IMG/VR virus record: IMGVR_UViG_3300021440_000097
Span: 1-28,330 of that record
Reading direction: 5' to 3' (one strand)
Length of the DNA stretch: 28,330 nt
DNA from: a virus
The position numbers and the translations under genes are program-made. Shown here one piece after another: positions 5,035-16,817 of this stretch (its first letter is position 1; each line of letters starts with the position of its first letter). The notes beneath the pieces are model-generated. The model was not told the origin of the DNA. It saw only the letters and a list, made by a program, of their open reading frames with translations, and did not search any database.

Positions 5035-5457
5035 ATGGCCAATACGCAAGCGATTAGCGGGATCATGAAGCAGGTTGCTTTAGGCGCTGTTGTAGACGGC
5101 AAAACCTTAAAGGCGGCTTTGTACCTTGCCTCTGCCACGACTAACGGCACGAATACTGTTTACACTGCTACGGGTGAAGTCTCAGGTTCAGGCTATAGTG
5201 CTGGCGGGGTATCGGTAACGAATGCGAACACGGCGGGGCTGACGAGCACAACGGCCTATTGGACGCCTTCTGCTTCGATTGCCTTTGGTACTGTCACCTT
5301 GGCGACTGCTTTTGACGCAGTGATGATTTACAGCACGACAGATACGAACAGAAACATTGGCGTGTTTACGTTCGGCAGCCAAGTAGTGACCGCGGGGACA
5401 GTCACCCTTCAAATGCCTGTGAATGACTCATCCACTGGGCTTGTCAGGTTTGCATAA
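5035..5457 (+). CDS. putative virion structural protein
   Basis: 140 aa, starting three bases after the upstream stop. Low in charge, rich in Thr/Ser/Gly/Ala and probably all-beta. Segments such as KAALYLASATTNGTNTVY, TGEVSGSGYSAGGVSV and TAYWTPSASIAFG belong to a pattern I recall in phage head-associated proteins of unknown role. The C-terminus reads GLVRFA, and its last codons plus the TAATGG that follows recur at the end of the neighbouring endonuclease gene. Assignment to the virion is by composition and context. Confidence 0.7.
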   Translation: MANTQAISGIMKQVALGAVVDGKTLKAALYLASATTNGTNTVYTATGEVSGSGYSAGGVSVTNANTAGLTSTTAYWTPSASIAFGTVTLATAFDAVMIYSTTDTNRNIGVFTFGSQVVTAGTVTLQMPVNDSSTGLVRFA

Positions 5458-5460
5458 TGG
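5444..5460 (+). repeat. gene-end repeat flanking the homing endonuclease, left copy
   Basis: TCAGGTTTGCATAATGG matches 6067-6083 at 14 of 17 bases. It encodes the end of the 140-aa protein (RFA stop) and contains the next start codon in TAATG. Confidence 0.75.
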
Positions 5461-6080
5461 TTACTGGAATTTACAAAATAGAAAATCTTAGCAACGGCAA
5501 AGTTTATATTGGGTCGTCTATTTCTATCCAAAAACGTTGGGGCGCGCATAAAAACTCCCTTCGCCGCCAAGTGCATGAAAATAGGCATTTGCAGAACGCT
5601 TGGAATAAGTATGGGCCTGATGGGTTTAAATGGGATGTATTATTGCAATGTCGTCCTTCAGACCGACTTTTTTATGAGCAGCGGGCATTGGACGCCTATC
5701 AATCTGCAAGTGTGGGATATAACAAACACCCATCTGCTGGCAGTGGGGCCGGGCTGGTTTTGTCGGCAGAGGCTAGGGCCAAAATATCTGCTGCGCGGAA
5801 GGGAAAACCTCTATCAGAAGAGCATAGGGCAGCTATAAGTGCTGGCGGATTAGGAACAAAAAGAGCGCCTAGATCAGAAGAATGGAGGCGAAAGTTATCC
5901 ATAGCTCAAACTGGGAAAAAGCTTTCAGAGGCTCAGAAAGCAAAGATTGGCGCTGCTCATATAGGTAAAAAGAAACCAGCCCAGTCTGCTGCATTAATGG
6001 GCAGGAAACTATCTGAATCGCATCGCGCAGCAATTTCGGCTGGGCACCAAAGAAGGCTGGCAAAAATGAGGTTCGCCTAA
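5457..6080 (+). CDS. GIY-YIG homing endonuclease with NUMOD3 repeats
   Basis: 207 aa. A free-standing endonuclease that would cut endonuclease-less alleles and spread by repair copying. GIY at 4-6, YIG at 17-19, catalytic Arg27, Glu74 in LFYEQRALDAY, and Asn89 are all present, so the domain looks intact. The C-terminal half has three DNA-binding NUMOD3-like units (SAEARAKISAARKGKPLSEE near 103-122, SEEWRRKLSIAQTGKKLSEA near 140-159, LSESHRAAISAG near 185-196). It shares TAATG with both neighbours, sits between two structural genes, and its end duplicates the end of the upstream gene. Confidence 0.93.
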   Translation: MVTGIYKIENLSNGKVYIGSSISIQKRWGAHKNSLRRQVHENRHLQNAWNKYGPDGFKWDVLLQCRPSDRLFYEQRALDAYQSASVGYNKHPSAGSGAGLVLSAEARAKISAARKGKPLSEEHRAAISAGGLGTKRAPRSEEWRRKLSIAQTGKKLSEAQKAKIGAAHIGKKKPAQSAALMGRKLSESHRAAISAGHQRRLAKMRFA

Positions 6081-7552: not shown

Positions 7553-8164
7553 GTGCTACTCCCTCTACAGATTTTAATTAACCTCCGCGCAAGCGGGGGT
7601 GGCGTAACAGTTGCACTCACTGGTCAATCAGTAACGGTCAGTGCGGGGACTTTGGGCTATTCCAATAGCCTAGCGTTAAGCGGTACGGCAGTAACGGGAT
7701 CGGCAGGGACAATTTCCTACAGTTTAGGACTGCCCCTTGTTGGTTCAGCGGTAACGGTAAGTGCTGGCACTCTGTCGTATTCTGTTAGTTACGCTTTAAG
7801 TGGCGCGGCAGTAACAGGAAGTGCAGGGACTCTGGTTTATAACCTTGGCCTTGCACAGACTGGTATAGCGATAACGAGTTCGGCAGGAGCATTAGGGTAT
7901 ACGCTGTCACTTCCGATAACAGGTAGTGGAGTAACAGTAAGCGCTGGGACAATAAGTTATTCGTTTTCGAAGTCATTATCTGGGAGCGCAGTAACAGCAA
8001 GTGCAGGATCAGTATCTTATGTGCTCACTATCCCTCTGAATGGGGTAAGCGTTTCGGTAGATGCTGGGACGGTATTGGTAGATGGGGTAGTAGTAGTTAC
8101 TTCCACACGAAGGCATAGGTTATTATATTTGAACGGCGCAGGTGTATTCGGGAAAGGGTTGTAA
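7553..8164 (+). CDS. 20-residue beta-repeat structural protein
   Basis: 203 aa with a GTG start at 7553 behind GGGGGTGTAGA; no upstream start is open. After a short N-terminus (MLLPLQILINLRASGGG) come eight consecutive 20-residue units from Gly24 to about 183, each close to G-x-x-V-T-x-S-A-G-T-x-x-Y-x-x-x-L-x-L-x. Regular spacing suggests a beta-solenoid or stacked beta-hairpin fibre. The last unit is degenerate, and a short basic/hydrophobic end follows (STRRHRLLYLNGAGVFGKGL). Probably a virion surface or fibrous component; function unknown. Confidence 0.75.
   Translation: MLLPLQILINLRASGGGVTVALTGQSVTVSAGTLGYSNSLALSGTAVTGSAGTISYSLGLPLVGSAVTVSAGTLSYSVSYALSGAAVTGSAGTLVYNLGLAQTGIAITSSAGALGYTLSLPITGSGVTVSAGTISYSFSKSLSGSAVTASAGSVSYVLTIPLNGVSVSVDAGTVLVDGVVVVTSTRRHRLLYLNGAGVFGKGL
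7622..8101 (+). repeat. eight 60-bp coding tandem repeats
   Basis: Units begin with Gly codons every 60 bases. Cores read VTVSAGT in units 1, 3 and 6, VTGSAGT in 2 and 4, and related forms in the rest, so the first four show a 120-bp alternating super-period. DNA copies are diverged, which points to old duplication kept at the protein level. Confidence 0.8.
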
Positions 8165-11789: not shown

Positions 11790-12776
11790 ATGACAAGTCC
11801 CAATTCAACCTTTACGGAGCTGGTTACTACGACTCTCCGTAGCCACAGAAAGGGTATCGTAGACAACATTTCCAAACACAACGCTCTTTTGCGTCGCCTT
11901 GATCAAAAAGGCCGCAAAGTCACAGTTGACGGCGGTTTGACTATCGCCGCTGGCCATGACTACGCGGAAAACGGCACTTTCCAACGCTTCTCGGGCTATG
12001 ATACGTTGAATATCAACGCATCAGACGTTCTGACAGCCGCGGAATATAACTGGAAGAACATGGCTATTCATGTGGTAGCTTCCGGCGAAGAAATCCGCAA
12101 AAACTCCGGCAGCGATGTTCGACTGGCCAATCTGGTCGAAGAACGCATTAACAACGCCGTCCGTACTGCCAAAAACAACCTTTCAAGTGATATTTACTCG
12201 AATGGTACTGCGTCCAACCAGATCAATGGGCTTCAGGCAATTGCGCCTGATACCGCTGGCGGTACGCTTGGTGGTATTAACGGCACAACCTATAGCTACT
12301 GGCGTGCAGTAGTTCAGTCGGCAGCTTCTCCAATTACTGGCTCGGCAATTACTTTGTCTGAGTCAACTTTCGAGAAGTTTATCCGCCAACTGTACATTGC
12401 GCTGACTCGTGGCGACGACAAGCCTGACTTGCTGATTCTGTCTAATGACTACTACGAGCTGTTTGAAGGCTCTCAAGTAAGTCTGAAGCAGTACACGGCG
12501 AATACTACTACTGGTGCAAATAACGGTAATGGGGGGTTTGTTTCGTTGAAATACAAGTCTTGCGATGTATTCCACGATGGCAACTCGGGTATTTCAACTG
12601 CGCACGGGTATATGTTGAATACTGACTACCTGAAACTTGCTGTGCATCCCGATGCAGACTGGACTACGGTAGAAGACCAGCGACCAATCAATCAGGACGC
12701 AGTTGTTGTCCCGATGATCTGGATGGGTAATTTGATCTGCTCGAACCGCGCCCTTCAAGGCGTGGCTAAGGCTTGA
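11790..12776 (+). CDS. major capsid protein
   Basis: 328 aa, presumed HK97-fold coat subunit. Characteristic segments: LVTTTLRSHRKGIVDNISKH near the N-terminus, SGYDTLNINASDVLTAAEYN, VVASGEEIRKNSG, a central SDIYSNGTASNQINGLQAIA loop, and the end NLICSNRALQGVAKA. Good GAGGTAACTC binding site. Codon use is rich in CGT/CGC for Arg and lacks AGG, as expected for the most expressed gene and in contrast to terL. Follows the scaffold directly. Confidence 0.92.
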   Translation: MTSPNSTFTELVTTTLRSHRKGIVDNISKHNALLRRLDQKGRKVTVDGGLTIAAGHDYAENGTFQRFSGYDTLNINASDVLTAAEYNWKNMAIHVVASGEEIRKNSGSDVRLANLVEERINNAVRTAKNNLSSDIYSNGTASNQINGLQAIAPDTAGGTLGGINGTTYSYWRAVVQSAASPITGSAITLSESTFEKFIRQLYIALTRGDDKPDLLILSNDYYELFEGSQVSLKQYTANTTTGANNGNGGFVSLKYKSCDVFHDGNSGISTAHGYMLNTDYLKLAVHPDADWTTVEDQRPINQDAVVVPMIWMGNLICSNRALQGVAKA

Positions 12777-12784
12777 GGTGAACT

Positions 12785-13279
12785 ATGGCTACTAAAATTG
12801 TTGCGTCATTCGTAACTCCTCCGTTCAACTACAACAACAACGTCGCTGTTGTTCCGTTGGGCACTCGTGTCAACCTTGATGATGGTGGTGTTGCTATCTT
12901 CTGTCAGGCAGCTAGTGATGTATCTCAATATGCCGCTGTTGCTATTGGCGTGGGATATACCGCTGTGAATGCGACAACTACTGCGATTACGCAGGATACT
13001 GGTACTGGCCGTCAGTTGGGCTGGGTGCAGACTTCTATTGCATCCTCTAACTACTGCTGGGTTCAGGTATCTGGCCGACCAGTAGCGATGCTTGCTGCTA
13101 ACTGTGCCGACCGCGTCCAGTTGTTCACTACCGCCACTGCCGGGGTATTGGATGATGCGACGGTATCTACTGCTGAAGTATTGGGTGTCGTAGCGAAAAC
13201 ATCCATCTCTAACGCAACCGCTGTGACCTTGATGGTTCCATCGGCTGCTTATGTGGCTAACTTCGCACAACAGGCCTAA
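12785..13279 (+). CDS. putative head decoration protein
   Basis: 164 aa, nearly uncharged, Ala/Thr/Val-rich, all-beta in appearance, starting eight bases after the capsid stop behind GAGGTGAACT. Size, composition and place directly after the capsid gene fit a decoration or cementing protein. No Cys pattern or signal. Rich in Ser/Thr, hence a conceivable acceptor for the sugar-modification genes that follow with a TAATG overlap. Confidence 0.65.
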   Translation: MATKIVASFVTPPFNYNNNVAVVPLGTRVNLDDGGVAIFCQAASDVSQYAAVAIGVGYTAVNATTTAITQDTGTGRQLGWVQTSIASSNYCWVQVSGRPVAMLAANCADRVQLFTTATAGVLDDATVSTAEVLGVVAKTSISNATAVTLMVPSAAYVANFAQQA

Positions 13280-14046
13280 TGAAGTCGCTTAAGATAGATG
13301 TAAGACAATACGGAGGCTTCGGGGAGGTAGAGGGGAATATCCTTCACTCTACTTCCTTGGGGATTCCTGAACTTGAATTAAATCTTGATCCTCATGATGG
13401 GGTATTTGTCATTTGTGGTTCAGGGCCATCTATCAGCGATAACGTAGAGAAAATCAGGTCAGATAAGGAATCAGGTCATACTATTTGCGCGGTGAAGGAT
13501 GCTTATGACTTCTTGCGCACTAACGATCTAATCCCCGATCTTTATCTGTCCGTTGAGCCTCGGCACAAGCCGGTAAGGAATCCTCACAAGGGATCAACCT
13601 TTCTGCTTGCGTCGAGGTGTCATAAACAGATGTTTGAAGATTTGAAAGACTATCCTGTAAAACTCTGGCATTCATGGAGCGAGCAGGAGGATATGGAAAT
13701 ACTCAAAGACAGGCCGAGAATTGGAGGTGGTACAACTTCAGGACTCCGGGCGGTGAATGTTGCCTACTGTCTAGGATATAGAAAGTTCAAAATGTACGGC
13801 ATGGATTCTTCATTAGGAGTTCGTGGCGAGAAACGAGTGGGGCAAGATACGCTAGGCGACCATGTGACAAAGATGGACGTGATTGTGGATAATGTGTCCT
13901 ACATTACTAATATGGCGATGGCTGCCCAAGCGCAGGATTTCCAGAGTATCTACGACGTGATGCCTGATATATCGGTCGAAATGATAGGAACTGGACTTAT
14001 CCCTGCTATTTGGCAAGCTCGTAAACAAAGAGGGCTTAGATGCTGA
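13279..14046 (+). CDS. MptE-like / DUF115 domain protein (putative glycan transfer)
   Basis: 255 aa. Family marks: VFVICGSGPSISDN with CGSGPS at 46-51, PDLYLSVEPR at 86-95, GGGTTSGLRAVNVAYCLGYR at 149-168 and YGMDSS at 173-178. The same fold occurs in archaeal MptE (hydroxymethylpterin diphosphokinase) and in Maf proteins linked to flagellin glycosylation. Next to two glycosyltransferases, a Maf-like sugar-transfer role is more likely than pterin synthesis; this is inference. Starts in TAATG with the decoration gene and overlaps the next gene by seven bases. Confidence 0.75.
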   Translation: MKSLKIDVRQYGGFGEVEGNILHSTSLGIPELELNLDPHDGVFVICGSGPSISDNVEKIRSDKESGHTICAVKDAYDFLRTNDLIPDLYLSVEPRHKPVRNPHKGSTFLLASRCHKQMFEDLKDYPVKLWHSWSEQEDMEILKDRPRIGGGTTSGLRAVNVAYCLGYRKFKMYGMDSSLGVRGEKRVGQDTLGDHVTKMDVIVDNVSYITNMAMAAQAQDFQSIYDVMPDISVEMIGTGLIPAIWQARKQRGLRC

Positions 14047-14702
14047 ATATAGCAATTGGGTATGACCCCAACGAGTCAGTAGCATTTCATACGCTCGTGC
14101 AATCATTGATGGACAACAGTAGTAAGCCGCTTAATATCATGCCGCTTAATCTGAAAAACCTGCCTTTCAAGCGTGAGCGAAACCCGCTCCAATCCACTGA
14201 ATTCTCATTCTCCCGATTCCTTGTTCCTTATCTAAACAGCTTTAATGGTCTGTGTCTTTTTATGGACTGTGACATTCTCTGCGTTGGGGATGTGGCTGAG
14301 TTATTTGCCAGTTTTGATTACTGGAATGCCGTTCAGGTGGTCAAACACAACTATGAGCCTAAAACAAAATCAAAGTTTCTAGGGAATGTTCAAACTTCCT
14401 ACGCAAAGAAAAACTGGTCGAGTGTGATGCTGTTTAATTGCTCTCACTATGACTGTCAGAGACTGACCCTTGATTATGTAGAAAAAGCCTCCGGTTTGGA
14501 GTTGCATCAGTTCCACTGGACAGACAGAGTAGGTGAGTTAAATCCACAATGGAACTATCTGGTTGGCGAAAATCAGAAGGTAAAAGACCCCAAGCTGATT
14601 CACTACACATTGGGGGGGCCGTATTTCAATGATTACCGGGATTGTGAGTTTTCTAAAGAGTGGTTCGATACCAAGGCGAGGATGCTTCGATGCAAACAGT
14701 AA
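14040..14702 (+). CDS. GT8-like glycosyltransferase
   Basis: 220 aa. GT-A fold marks: N-terminal strand-helix IAIGYDPNESVAFHTLVQSL, then TEFSFSRFLVPYL (53-65) and the metal/nucleotide-sugar binding DxD motif in LFMDCDILC (Asp76, Asp78). NWSSVMLFNC follows mid-protein. This family uses nucleotide-sugar donors; donor and acceptor here are unknown. It is a single cytosolic domain without membrane anchor. Overlaps both neighbours, so made with the head proteins. Confidence 0.85.
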   Translation: MLNIAIGYDPNESVAFHTLVQSLMDNSSKPLNIMPLNLKNLPFKRERNPLQSTEFSFSRFLVPYLNSFNGLCLFMDCDILCVGDVAELFASFDYWNAVQVVKHNYEPKTKSKFLGNVQTSYAKKNWSSVMLFNCSHYDCQRLTLDYVEKASGLELHQFHWTDRVGELNPQWNYLVGENQKVKDPKLIHYTLGGPYFNDYRDCEFSKEWFDTKARMLRCKQ

Positions 14703-15511
14703 GCTTTATTCACTCAGCACCAGAGCTTGCCTCTTATCGCTATCGTGCGGCGATGCCAGCAAAAGAGATAGGAGCTGAAATCAACGACTATTCCAGAGAC
14801 ATTCTGGTATTTTCAAAGCCACAAGTAGATGAACTTAATAAGGCTGAAATGCTGGTAAAACAGCTAAAGACTATTGTTCTTGATATTTGCGATGACCACT
14901 TTGGACACCAGTATATCGGGCCTATTTATAGAGACTTTCTCAAGATAGCCTCTGCTGTAAGCTGTCCTACTAAAAAGATGGCAGAAAGGATAAGGGAATT
15001 TACCAGCCTCCCTATTATAGTGATTCCTGACCCTTACGAAATGGATGAAGTAGAGCCTCATGCCGAGGGAGATAAGTTGATTTGGTTCGGGCATCAAGTA
15101 AATCTGAAAGCTATTGAGCCTCACTTAAATCTGCCTAATCTGACGATTGTAACCGGGTGTAATGCGGAATCCTCCCCCTATGTCCCCTATTCTAAAGAGC
15201 GATTAGATAAGGAAATGCGACTCGCTAATATCGCGCTATTTCCTACAATGAAAGGGCATGAGTATAAATCCCCTAATCGGGTGATTAACTCCCTGCGAAT
15301 GGGATTATTTCCCGTATGCCACAAGCATCCGTCCTATGTTGAGTTTAAAAGATTCCTGTGGGCTTCTGATGTGCGAACCGGACTCCGATGGGCTAAAGAG
15401 TTCAGAAGCGACCTGAATGGGCTTGTAAAAGAAGGGCAGGACTATATAAGAGACAGATACTCGCCTAAAACCGTAGGGGATCAGTGGAGGGACTTTCTAT
15501 GCTACGTTTAA
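14690..15511 (+). CDS. GT-B (GT4-like) glycosyltransferase
   Basis: 273 aa from ATG 14690, chosen because GAGGATGC lies just upstream; a longer form from 14660 is less likely. The N-terminal half has ELASYRYRAAMPAKEIGAEI and LDICDDHFG (64-72); the C-terminal half has LIWFGHQVNLKAIEP and the donor-binding region KSPNRVINSLRMGLFPVC (193-210), giving the two Rossmann-like domains of GT-B enzymes. Shorter than most GT4 proteins (350-400 aa), so a compact version. Overlaps the GT8-like gene by 13 bases and the methyltransferase gene by 13. Confidence 0.78.
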   Translation: MQTVSFIHSAPELASYRYRAAMPAKEIGAEINDYSRDILVFSKPQVDELNKAEMLVKQLKTIVLDICDDHFGHQYIGPIYRDFLKIASAVSCPTKKMAERIREFTSLPIIVIPDPYEMDEVEPHAEGDKLIWFGHQVNLKAIEPHLNLPNLTIVTGCNAESSPYVPYSKERLDKEMRLANIALFPTMKGHEYKSPNRVINSLRMGLFPVCHKHPSYVEFKRFLWASDVRTGLRWAKEFRSDLNGLVKEGQDYIRDRYSPKTVGDQWRDFLCYV

Positions 15512-15972
15512 ACCTTGGTTCAGGAAGGCATTACTGGCCAAATGCGGTCAATATCGACCATGACGAAAGGGCGGATATTGTAGGCTCGGTAGAGGAGCTT
15601 AACTACCCGGATGAGTCGGTAGACGAAATTTATGCAATCCATCTTTTTGAGCATATTCACCGGGTAAAAGCACCGGAAGTCTTGAAAGAGTGGTGCAGAG
15701 CGTTGAAAATGGGAGGGAAGCTGGTGATAGAGGTTCCCTGCCTGAACAAAATTGCTGCTATGATTATGGAGGGGGAAGAAAAGCCCACGCATACATTATT
15801 CGGCATATTCGGGGATGTAAGGGAGGAAAGCCCTTATATGCTCCATCGGTGGTGCTACACAGCGAAAGAGCTATCAGCACTAATGATCGAGGCGGGATTA
15901 TCGGTAGAAGTTTCCGAGCCTGTCTATCACTTTGCAAAGCGCGATATGCGCGTTACGGGAGTTAAGGTATGA
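15499..15972 (+). CDS. class I SAM-dependent methyltransferase
   Basis: 157 aa from ATG 15499 behind GGAGG; the GTG at 15484 is less favoured. Motif I LNLGSG (4-9), acidic Asp20 after the second strand, HLFEHI (48-53) and GGKLVIEVP (72-80) follow the Methyltransf_11 pattern. Substrate unknown; small methyltransferases of this type often sit in sugar-modification clusters, so methylation of a sugar is plausible. A stop/start ATGA links it to the next gene. Confidence 0.85.
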   Translation: MLRLNLGSGRHYWPNAVNIDHDERADIVGSVEELNYPDESVDEIYAIHLFEHIHRVKAPEVLKEWCRALKMGGKLVIEVPCLNKIAAMIMEGEEKPTHTLFGIFGDVREESPYMLHRWCYTAKELSALMIEAGLSVEVSEPVYHFAKRDMRVTGVKV

Positions 15973-16817
15973 GTAGAACGGCTAACTACGAAGCGAAAGA
16001 ACAATTACCAAGGATTCGATTTGAGTCTACTTCTCTCCCCGATAAAATCGCCTCGGAGCAGACCGGGCATGAGGAGTTCAAAAACGTCATCATTGCCTAC
16101 CTTTCCGCTGCGGGGGATATGAAGTGTGAAGTGCCTGAAGTTGCGGAAGATATTGGATATGAGCCTTATACCAAGCGGATAACGGTAGATAAGGAAATCA
16201 CCAAATTTCGCGAGAATAAAGAGACAAAACTTTTAGAGGAGCACACCGAAACGGTTTCCTTTGAAGAAGATCGCGTCTTTTACACCAAGTCTGTCACTAA
16301 TCCTTGGCTGGAAAAGCTGCGTGAAGCGGTACGAAACGGGTACACATCTCAGTATTACTTTGATCATTGTCTTGCTGCATTTAACGCTTACAAGAAGAAA
16401 GAAGATATGCCTATTGATGGGTATGCGCTGATTAACTGGCGCGGCATTGATCCTGCTGCGCGGGAAAAATTCCTTGCGATGGGGATTAACTCTGTTGAGA
16501 AAATTGCAGCCATGACGGAAGAAGCCATGCAGTATTACGGTATGGGTGCGCGAGCATACAAGGATAAAGCCAAGGCATTTTTGATGGCTAATGATAAACC
16601 AGAACAGGCCACGCTTCAGATTACCAAGCTTCAGAGTGAAAACACTGAGATGCGCGAAATCATGACTGCCATGCAGCAAAAGCTGGCTGAAATGGAGCGG
16701 TTAAATAATCGCAATCAGGAACTTGAAGACTTGAGAGATCAGTATCGTCGTAAATTCAACAAGGATGCTGATAAGCGATGGAAAGAGGATAAAATTCGGG
16801 AAGCTCTGGAGGCATAA
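15969..16817 (+). CDS. helix-hairpin-helix and coiled-coil virion-associated protein
   Basis: 282 aa, charged. Middle region INWRGIDPAAREKFLAMGIN followed by SVEKIAAMTEEAMQYYGMG resembles a helix-hairpin-helix; residues about 215-280 form a coiled coil (ITKLQSENTEMREIMTAMQQ). I recall similar proteins between capsid and adaptor genes in other short-tailed phages, where the role is unknown. It would follow the decoration gene directly if the sugar cassette were absent. ATGA overlap upstream, TAATG downstream. Confidence 0.65.
   Translation: MSRTANYEAKEQLPRIRFESTSLPDKIASEQTGHEEFKNVIIAYLSAAGDMKCEVPEVAEDIGYEPYTKRITVDKEITKFRENKETKLLEEHTETVSFEEDRVFYTKSVTNPWLEKLREAVRNGYTSQYYFDHCLAAFNAYKKKEDMPIDGYALINWRGIDPAAREKFLAMGINSVEKIAAMTEEAMQYYGMGARAYKDKAKAFLMANDKPEQATLQITKLQSENTEMREIMTAMQQKLAEMERLNNRNQELEDLRDQYRRKFNKDADKRWKEDKIREALEA

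What the first reader, a model, noticed from the sequence alone, without database searches (positions are those of the whole stretch)
13279..15972. Sugar-modification cassette embedded in the head operon
Four genes with overlapping starts and stops (MptE/Maf-like DUF115, GT8-like with DCD, compact GT-B, SAM methyltransferase) sit between the decoration protein and a coiled-coil structural gene. Coexpression with capsid genes, Ser/Thr-rich neighbours and the Maf link to flagellin glycosylation suggest that the phage glycosylates its own virion with a possibly methylated sugar. Modification of host surface glycan is the rival idea, but late expression favours the virion. The DUF115 plus methyltransferase combination in a short-tailed phage seems unusual.
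Basis: partly seen in the sequence, partly recalled or inferred. Interest (0 to 1): 0.75.

Follow-up and report, generated by a model that had tools for sequence, protein, structure and literature searches.

The report
Phage cassette glycosylating its decoration protein
A virus of bacteria known only from environmental DNA carries, between its shell genes, a small set of sugar-attaching enzymes that in its relatives is nearly always found beside one particular type of shell-coating protein, suggesting that the virus sugar-coats its own particle.

Summary
At 13279-15972 four overlapping genes encode a DUF115/MptE-Maf protein, a GT8 transferase with an intact DCD motif, a GT-B transferase (AlphaFold model closest to GtfC/Gtf3, which glycosylate serine-rich adhesins) and a small SAM methyltransferase. 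They lie between a gene whose product folds like capsid decoration proteins and the p50 gene of an Mx8-like head-tail module. Relatives without the block close up here, so it is a variable slot. In a sample chosen by capsid similarity, 19 of 143 phages have DUF115 there. Short DUF115 always pairs with the window's decoration subtype (8/8); long DUF115 fusions never do (0/10). DUF115 divergence follows the decoration protein, not the capsid. Slot genes in relatives (C-methyltransferase, FdtA, FkbM, DUF115-GT2 and DUF115-methyltransferase fusions) are glycan enzymes. Best explanation: DUF115 starts O-glycosylation of the decoration protein, GT8 and GT-B extend the glycan, the methyltransferase caps it. 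Virion glycosylation is known in mycobacteriophages; this enzyme set and pairing look like a new variant. DUF115, GT-B and the decoration subtype have no tblastn match in 50,697 phage records. No glycan or activity was measured. Modification of host glycans is less likely but not excluded.

The parts
12785..13279 (+). Capsid decoration protein, 164 aa; proposed glycan acceptor; Ser84 in loop 82-89 is the best candidate site
   Evidence: AlphaFold pLDDT 85, Foldseek hits to decoration/cement proteins of HFTV1, Pam3, T1, TW1, phi29, Adjutor; pairing with DUF115; Ser84 conservation
13279..14046 (+). DUF115 / MptE-Maf protein, 255 aa; proposed initiating O-glycosyltransferase
   Evidence: PF01973 1e-14; profile hits PDB 5mu5 9.6e-5 and MptE 8sd5 3.5e-4; in slot of 19/143 capsid-seeded relatives
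14040..14702 (+). GT8-type glycosyltransferase, 220 aa, DCD (DxD) motif; proposed extending enzyme
   Evidence: PF01501 8e-6 over cut-off; DxD and late His invariant in 7 homologues; 55% identity to Pelagibacter phage Mosig
14690..15511 (+). GT-B glycosyltransferase, 273 aa, Gtf3/GtfC-like fold; proposed extending enzyme
   Evidence: AlphaFold pLDDT 95; Foldseek best hits GtfC 1e-8, TM 0.72-0.77; start from homologues
15499..15972 (+). Class I SAM methyltransferase, 157 aa; proposed glycan-capping enzyme
   Evidence: Methyltransf_11 5e-9; conserved N-terminal LN(L/V/I)G-type motif in homologues
15969..16817 (+). p50-like coiled-coil gene of Mx8-like phages, downstream border of the slot
   Evidence: Position and profile matches in relatives
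11790..12776 (+). Major capsid protein, the upstream neighbour used as unbiased seed
   Evidence: phrog_9953 5e-76; 36% identity to Mx8 head protein

Best explanation
The block is a virion-glycosylation cassette in a variable slot after the decoration gene of an Mx8-like phage. Late in infection, DUF115 (Maf-like) attaches the first sugar to a Ser/Thr of the decoration protein in the cytoplasm; Ser84 in the 82-89 loop is the best candidate. The GT-B and GT8 enzymes extend the glycan with host-supplied nucleotide sugars, and the methyltransferase methylates a sugar, giving a glycan coat on the capsid. Shown: gene identities by family or fold, decoration fold, slot conservation, and the pairing of DUF115 subtype with decoration subtype. 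Inferred: enzyme activity, order of steps, acceptor residue, donor source, late expression and biological benefit (altered surface, adsorption or recognition).
For: Family and fold identities. Same slot in relatives, closed in cassette-free phages. 78/78 and 72/72 adjacency in similarity-selected samples. In the capsid-seeded sample short DUF115 8/8 with the window's decoration subtype, long DUF115 0/10, no DUF115 3/99. Cassette phages share decoration similarity beyond capsid similarity, 2/5000 permutations. DUF115 distance tracks decoration distance given MCP and p51 (partial r 0.48, 0/2000), but not MCP (-0.02). Other slot genes are sugar enzymes and fusions: FdtA, FkbM, C-methyltransferase, GT2-DUF115, DUF115-methyltransferase. 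Best GT-B structural relatives act on protein-bound glycans (PMC5207161, PMC12809243). Maf glycosylates flagellin in the cytoplasm (PMC4065374).
Against: No glycan, activity or expression was measured. Neighbouring genes co-inherit by linkage, so correlated divergence does not prove that one acts on the other. The independent-pairs test on the capsid tree lacked power. Three cassette-free phages have a related decoration protein. PF01973 also holds a pterin kinase, MptE, which scores nearly as well as 5mu5. DUF115 here lacks the extra domains of the 666-residue protein 5mu5.
Confidence: 0.6

Rival explanations
1. The cassette alters the host's surface polysaccharide during infection, blocking superinfection or helping release, and sits in the late operon only for timing.
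For: Pelagimyophage GT8 genes were interpreted this way (PMC7029224), and the window GT8 is 55% identical to one in Pelagibacter phage Mosig.
Against: Cassette genes stay in the decoration-p50 slot; DUF115 subtype goes with decoration subtype. None of the four has a clear membrane segment by hydropathy (GT8 peaks at 1.61 over its DCD strand), so no flippase or membrane transferase of a gtr-type cassette is present.
Confidence: 0.15
2. The virion is glycosylated, but on another protein: capsid, p50, a tail fibre or the small proteins often found after DUF115 in relatives. The decoration link is only gene proximity.
For: Mycobacteriophages carry glycans on capsid and tail tube (PMC12619734). A Ser/Thr-rich small protein family lies between DUF115 and p50 in many loci and 124 of 126 loci bearing it have DUF115 (loci partly selected by DUF115).
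Against: The capsid shows no residual correlation with DUF115; the small protein is absent from the window; the 20-residue-repeat protein is not conserved.
Confidence: 0.17
3. The enzymes modify DNA or make a small molecule: DUF115 acts as an MptE-like pterin kinase or the GTs glycosylate DNA bases.
For: Phage GTs often modify DNA (general knowledge); the Pfam name of PF01973 is MptE-like.
Against: No thymidylate-synthase-family gene in 15 cassette-bearing relatives of 18-41 kb (some are fragments, and other base-modification genes were not searched). DUF115 is fused to GT2 and methyltransferases and accompanied by sugar enzymes. The cassette is in the head operon beside the decoration gene.
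Confidence: 0.04

Closest known systems
Virion glycosylation of mycobacteriophages (Che8 and relatives; Freeman et al. 2023, known here through PMC11256854, PMC12619734, PMC11652166)
   Same: Phage-encoded glycosyltransferases that glycosylate the phage's own virion proteins (proposed here, shown there)
   Different: There capsid and tail tube are the acceptors; here the decoration protein is proposed. DUF115 and GT-B have no tblastn match in any of 50,697 phage records, and GT8 none in a mycobacteriophage
Maf flagellin glycosylation (PF01973 domain; PMC4065374, PMC11339370)
   Same: DUF115/MptE-like domain; proposed cytoplasmic O-glycosylation of a surface structural protein
   Different: Phage protein is 255 aa, against 666 aa of the chain 5mu5; no nonulosonic acid genes recognised; no activity known
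Serine-rich repeat adhesin glycosylation (Gtf3/GtfC, GT113, with further GTs; PMC5207161, PMC12809243)
   Same: GT-B of the same fold as Gtf3 plus further transferases building a glycan stepwise on protein
   Different: Initiator there is GtfA/GtfB, here presumably DUF115; sequence identity to GtfC only 10-16%
Uncultivated podovirus MW202512 (ctDrO704) slot
   Same: TPR protein, methyltransferase and a GT8 47% identical to the window's lie between capsid and tail genes
   Different: None of the window-module profiles except GT8 matched it; no DUF115; its TPR protein was not identified further

Membership tests
Maf flagellin glycosyltransferase | PF01973 (MptE-like/MAF) domain | tested here: met
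   1e-14, 55.1 bits over cut-off 34.6
Maf flagellin glycosyltransferase | Full-length architecture with further domains around the central one | tested here: not met
   255 aa versus 666 aa of 5mu5, match limited to 268-415
Maf flagellin glycosyltransferase | Transfer of a nonulosonic acid to Ser/Thr of flagellin | not testable with these tools
   Needs biochemistry; works-like claim only
GT8 glycosyltransferase | Family profile and DxD motif | tested here: met
   PF01501 26.0 bits over cut-off 24.3; DCD invariant in 7 sequences
GT113 (Gtf3/GtfC) | GT-B fold of Gtf3 type | tested here: met
   TM-score 0.72-0.77, E to 1e-8
GT113 (Gtf3/GtfC) | Sequence membership | tested here: inconclusive
   10-16% identity; profile search gave 3qkw only at E 0.99; no CAZy profile at hand
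Phage virion glycosylation system | Glycosyltransferases encoded by the phage with its virion genes | tested here: met
   Slot between decoration and p50 in window and relatives
Phage virion glycosylation system | Covalent glycan on a virion protein | not testable with these tools
   Needs mass spectrometry
Serotype-converting gtr cassette | Membrane flippase and membrane-bound transferase | tested here: not met
   No clear membrane segment in the four proteins (simple hydropathy only)
Phage DNA hypermodification | Base-modifying thymidylate-synthase-type enzyme | tested here: not met
   0 of 15 relatives; fragments and other enzyme types not excluded
Mx8-like phage module | Portal, MCP, decoration, p50, p51, p52 in this order | tested here: met

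The most novel reading that the evidence does not exclude
Decoration protein and DUF115 form an acceptor-transferase pair that is swapped as a unit between phages of one capsid family, with interchangeable downstream sugar enzymes, so that phages diversify a glycan coat on the capsid independently of the capsid lineage. Ser84 would be the dedicated attachment site.
Probability: 0.4. Interest if true: 0.8.

Novelty: new variant of a known kind. Interest (0 to 1): 0.68.

Why it matters
If true, protein glycosylation of capsids reaches beyond mycobacteriophages to a family of environmental Mx8-like phages whose capsid relatives occur mostly in proteobacterial genomes. It would give a compact Maf-like enzyme with a small defined acceptor that can be tested by co-expression in E. 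coli, and it makes testable why phages sugar-coat their capsids.

Tried and rejected
Ser/Thr-rich 20-residue repeat protein as acceptor: no homologue in related cassette loci. DNA modification: no thymidylate-synthase family in 15 relatives. Phage-made donor sugar: no RmlA-type or RmlB/GMD-type enzyme in 17 relatives, so a host donor is assumed. Ordinary prophage or serotype-conversion genes: of 62 genome loci spanning the module with related capsids few carry DUF115 (5 of 80 loci in all), all five in MAGs, none in the isolate genomes; a first genome scan for DUF115 itself found none. A composition signal of recent acquisition: cassette GC 43-48% is within the range of its neighbours. Sequence search for the decoration protein in the PDB: nothing, solved by fold. 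First attempt at decoration-ORF picking had an indexing error, redone. The pairwise test on the full sample is inflated by selection, so repeats it on the capsid-seeded sample (2/5000 permutations). NCBIfam gave no useful assignment.

Full report
WHAT IS THERE. The window is a 28,330-base IMG/VR virus record. Its module, terminase - portal - scaffold-like - capsid - decoration - [block] - p50 - p51 tail - p52, matches Mx8-like phages. The block is four genes: DUF115 13279-14046, GT8 14040-14702, GT-B 14690-15511 and MTase 15499-15972, with 1-13 base overlaps including its borders. Homologues fix the GT-B and MTase starts downstream of the first possible start codon.

IDENTITIES. DUF115: PF01973 1e-14; PDB profile hits 5mu5 9.6e-5 and MptE 8sd5 3.5e-4. 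5mu5 is deposited as 'uncharacterized protein'; that it is Maf of Magnetospirillum is my own knowledge. GT8: PF01501 over cut-off with invariant DxD. GT-B: no convincing Pfam match, but the AlphaFold model (pLDDT 95) is closest to GtfC/Gtf3, the second-step enzymes of serine-rich adhesin glycosylation (PMC5207161, PMC12809243). MTase: Methyltransf_11. The upstream protein folds as a capsid decoration/cement protein: pLDDT 85; hits HFTV1, Pam3, T1, TW1, phi29 gp8.5, Adjutor. TM-scores are about 0.5 and the best E is 5e-4, so this is a fold-level, not a close, match.

EMPTY AND OCCUPIED SLOTS. Mx8, Mx9, MW202489 and a Bradyrhizobium phage have capsid, decoration-position gene(s) and p50 with no cassette. 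In a sample fetched by capsid similarity only, 143 unique capsids span the slot and 19 have DUF115 there. Contents among all loci with DUF115 and p50: no other recognised cassette gene 69, DUF115-GTB-MTase 32, with GT8 after MTase 14 or before GTB 9, with C-methyltransferase 9, with both 2 (not deduplicated). Long DUF115 proteins are fused to GT2 (L202) or methyltransferases (L173, L217), and neighbours include FdtA and FkbM.

PAIRING WITH THE DECORATION PROTEIN. In similarity-selected samples 78/78 decoration ORFs are followed by DUF115 and 72/72 DUF115 ORFs preceded by a decoration ORF, contig edges aside. Because those samples are selected towards the window, the capsid-seeded sample is the fair one: short DUF115 with the window's decoration subtype 8/8, long DUF115 0/10, no DUF115 3/99 (Fisher values ignore phylogeny). 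The subtype score came from a profile of cassette-bearing decorations, so part of this is by construction; the three exceptions (L214, L235, L243) show the fold exists without the cassette. Pairs of cassette phages share decoration similarity beyond what capsid similarity predicts (2/5000 permutations; permutation ignores phylogeny). In 27 non-redundant loci DUF115 distance follows decoration distance given MCP and p51 (partial r 0.48, 0/2000), whereas the partial correlation of MCP with DUF115 given p51 and decoration is -0.02. Linkage of neighbours remains a possible cause. Cassette presence changes at least 12 times on the capsid tree; the independent-pairs test agrees in direction but lacks power.

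CANDIDATE SITE. Ser84 is invariant in 37 cassette-bearing decorations and present in 5% of 40 cassette-free relatives; in the three nearest exceptions it is G, A and A. It lies in the loop between predicted strands 77-81 and 90-94. Thr148 (97% versus 5%) is a second candidate. This is inference from conservation; subtype-specific structural residues would look the same.

MECHANISM (inferred). DUF115 puts the first sugar on the decoration protein, as Maf does on flagellin in the cytoplasm (PMC4065374). GT-B and GT8 extend it; the methyltransferase caps it. DUF115 as initiator follows from its being the one glycan enzyme present in every cassette seen here. Donor sugars are taken to come from the host: no RmlA- or RmlB-type genes in 17 relatives' records, some of them fragments.

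RIVALS. Host surface modification has been proposed for GT8 genes in pelagimyophages (PMC7029224); against it here stand the slot, the pairing and the absence of recognised membrane parts. Another virion acceptor remains possible. DNA modification is unlikely.

NOVELTY. Virion glycosylation by phage enzymes is known in mycobacteriophages (PMC11256854, PMC12619734, PMC11652166; the primary paper, Freeman et al. 2023, was not held). No paper found in the held library linked DUF115 to phage virions (4 papers, none on this by title and abstract). DUF115, GT-B and the decoration subtype have no tblastn match in 50,697 phage records; the methyltransferase has only weak ones. I rate it a new variant of a known kind.

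Noticed in passing
L141:8773-9600 and similar places between DUF115 and p50 in many loci: A Ser/Thr-rich protein of about 275 aa (or two ORFs of about 120 aa, as in L011) follows DUF115; 124 of 126 loci with it have DUF115, with a weak sub-threshold BclA_C match. Possible second virion acceptor.
   Followed up: partly
window 7553-8164: Serine/threonine-rich (27%) protein of about 20-residue repeats between terminase and portal genes, without homologues in the relatives examined.
   Followed up: partly
L007:7254-9824: Another podovirus (MW202512) has a TPR protein, HNH endonuclease and methyltransferase before its GT8 in the head-tail region, perhaps an independent glycan cassette.
   Followed up: partly
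L228:1867-3282, L221:83-2761: Second, divergent DUF115 ORFs upstream of the capsid gene in a few cassette-bearing loci.
   Followed up: no
window 5457-6080: GIY-YIG homing endonuclease inserted among the genes between terminase and portal.
   Followed up: no
L014:3932-4642, L016:4206-5003: In some relatives the GT8 gene lies between the portal and scaffold genes while the rest of the cassette stays in place.
   Followed up: partly
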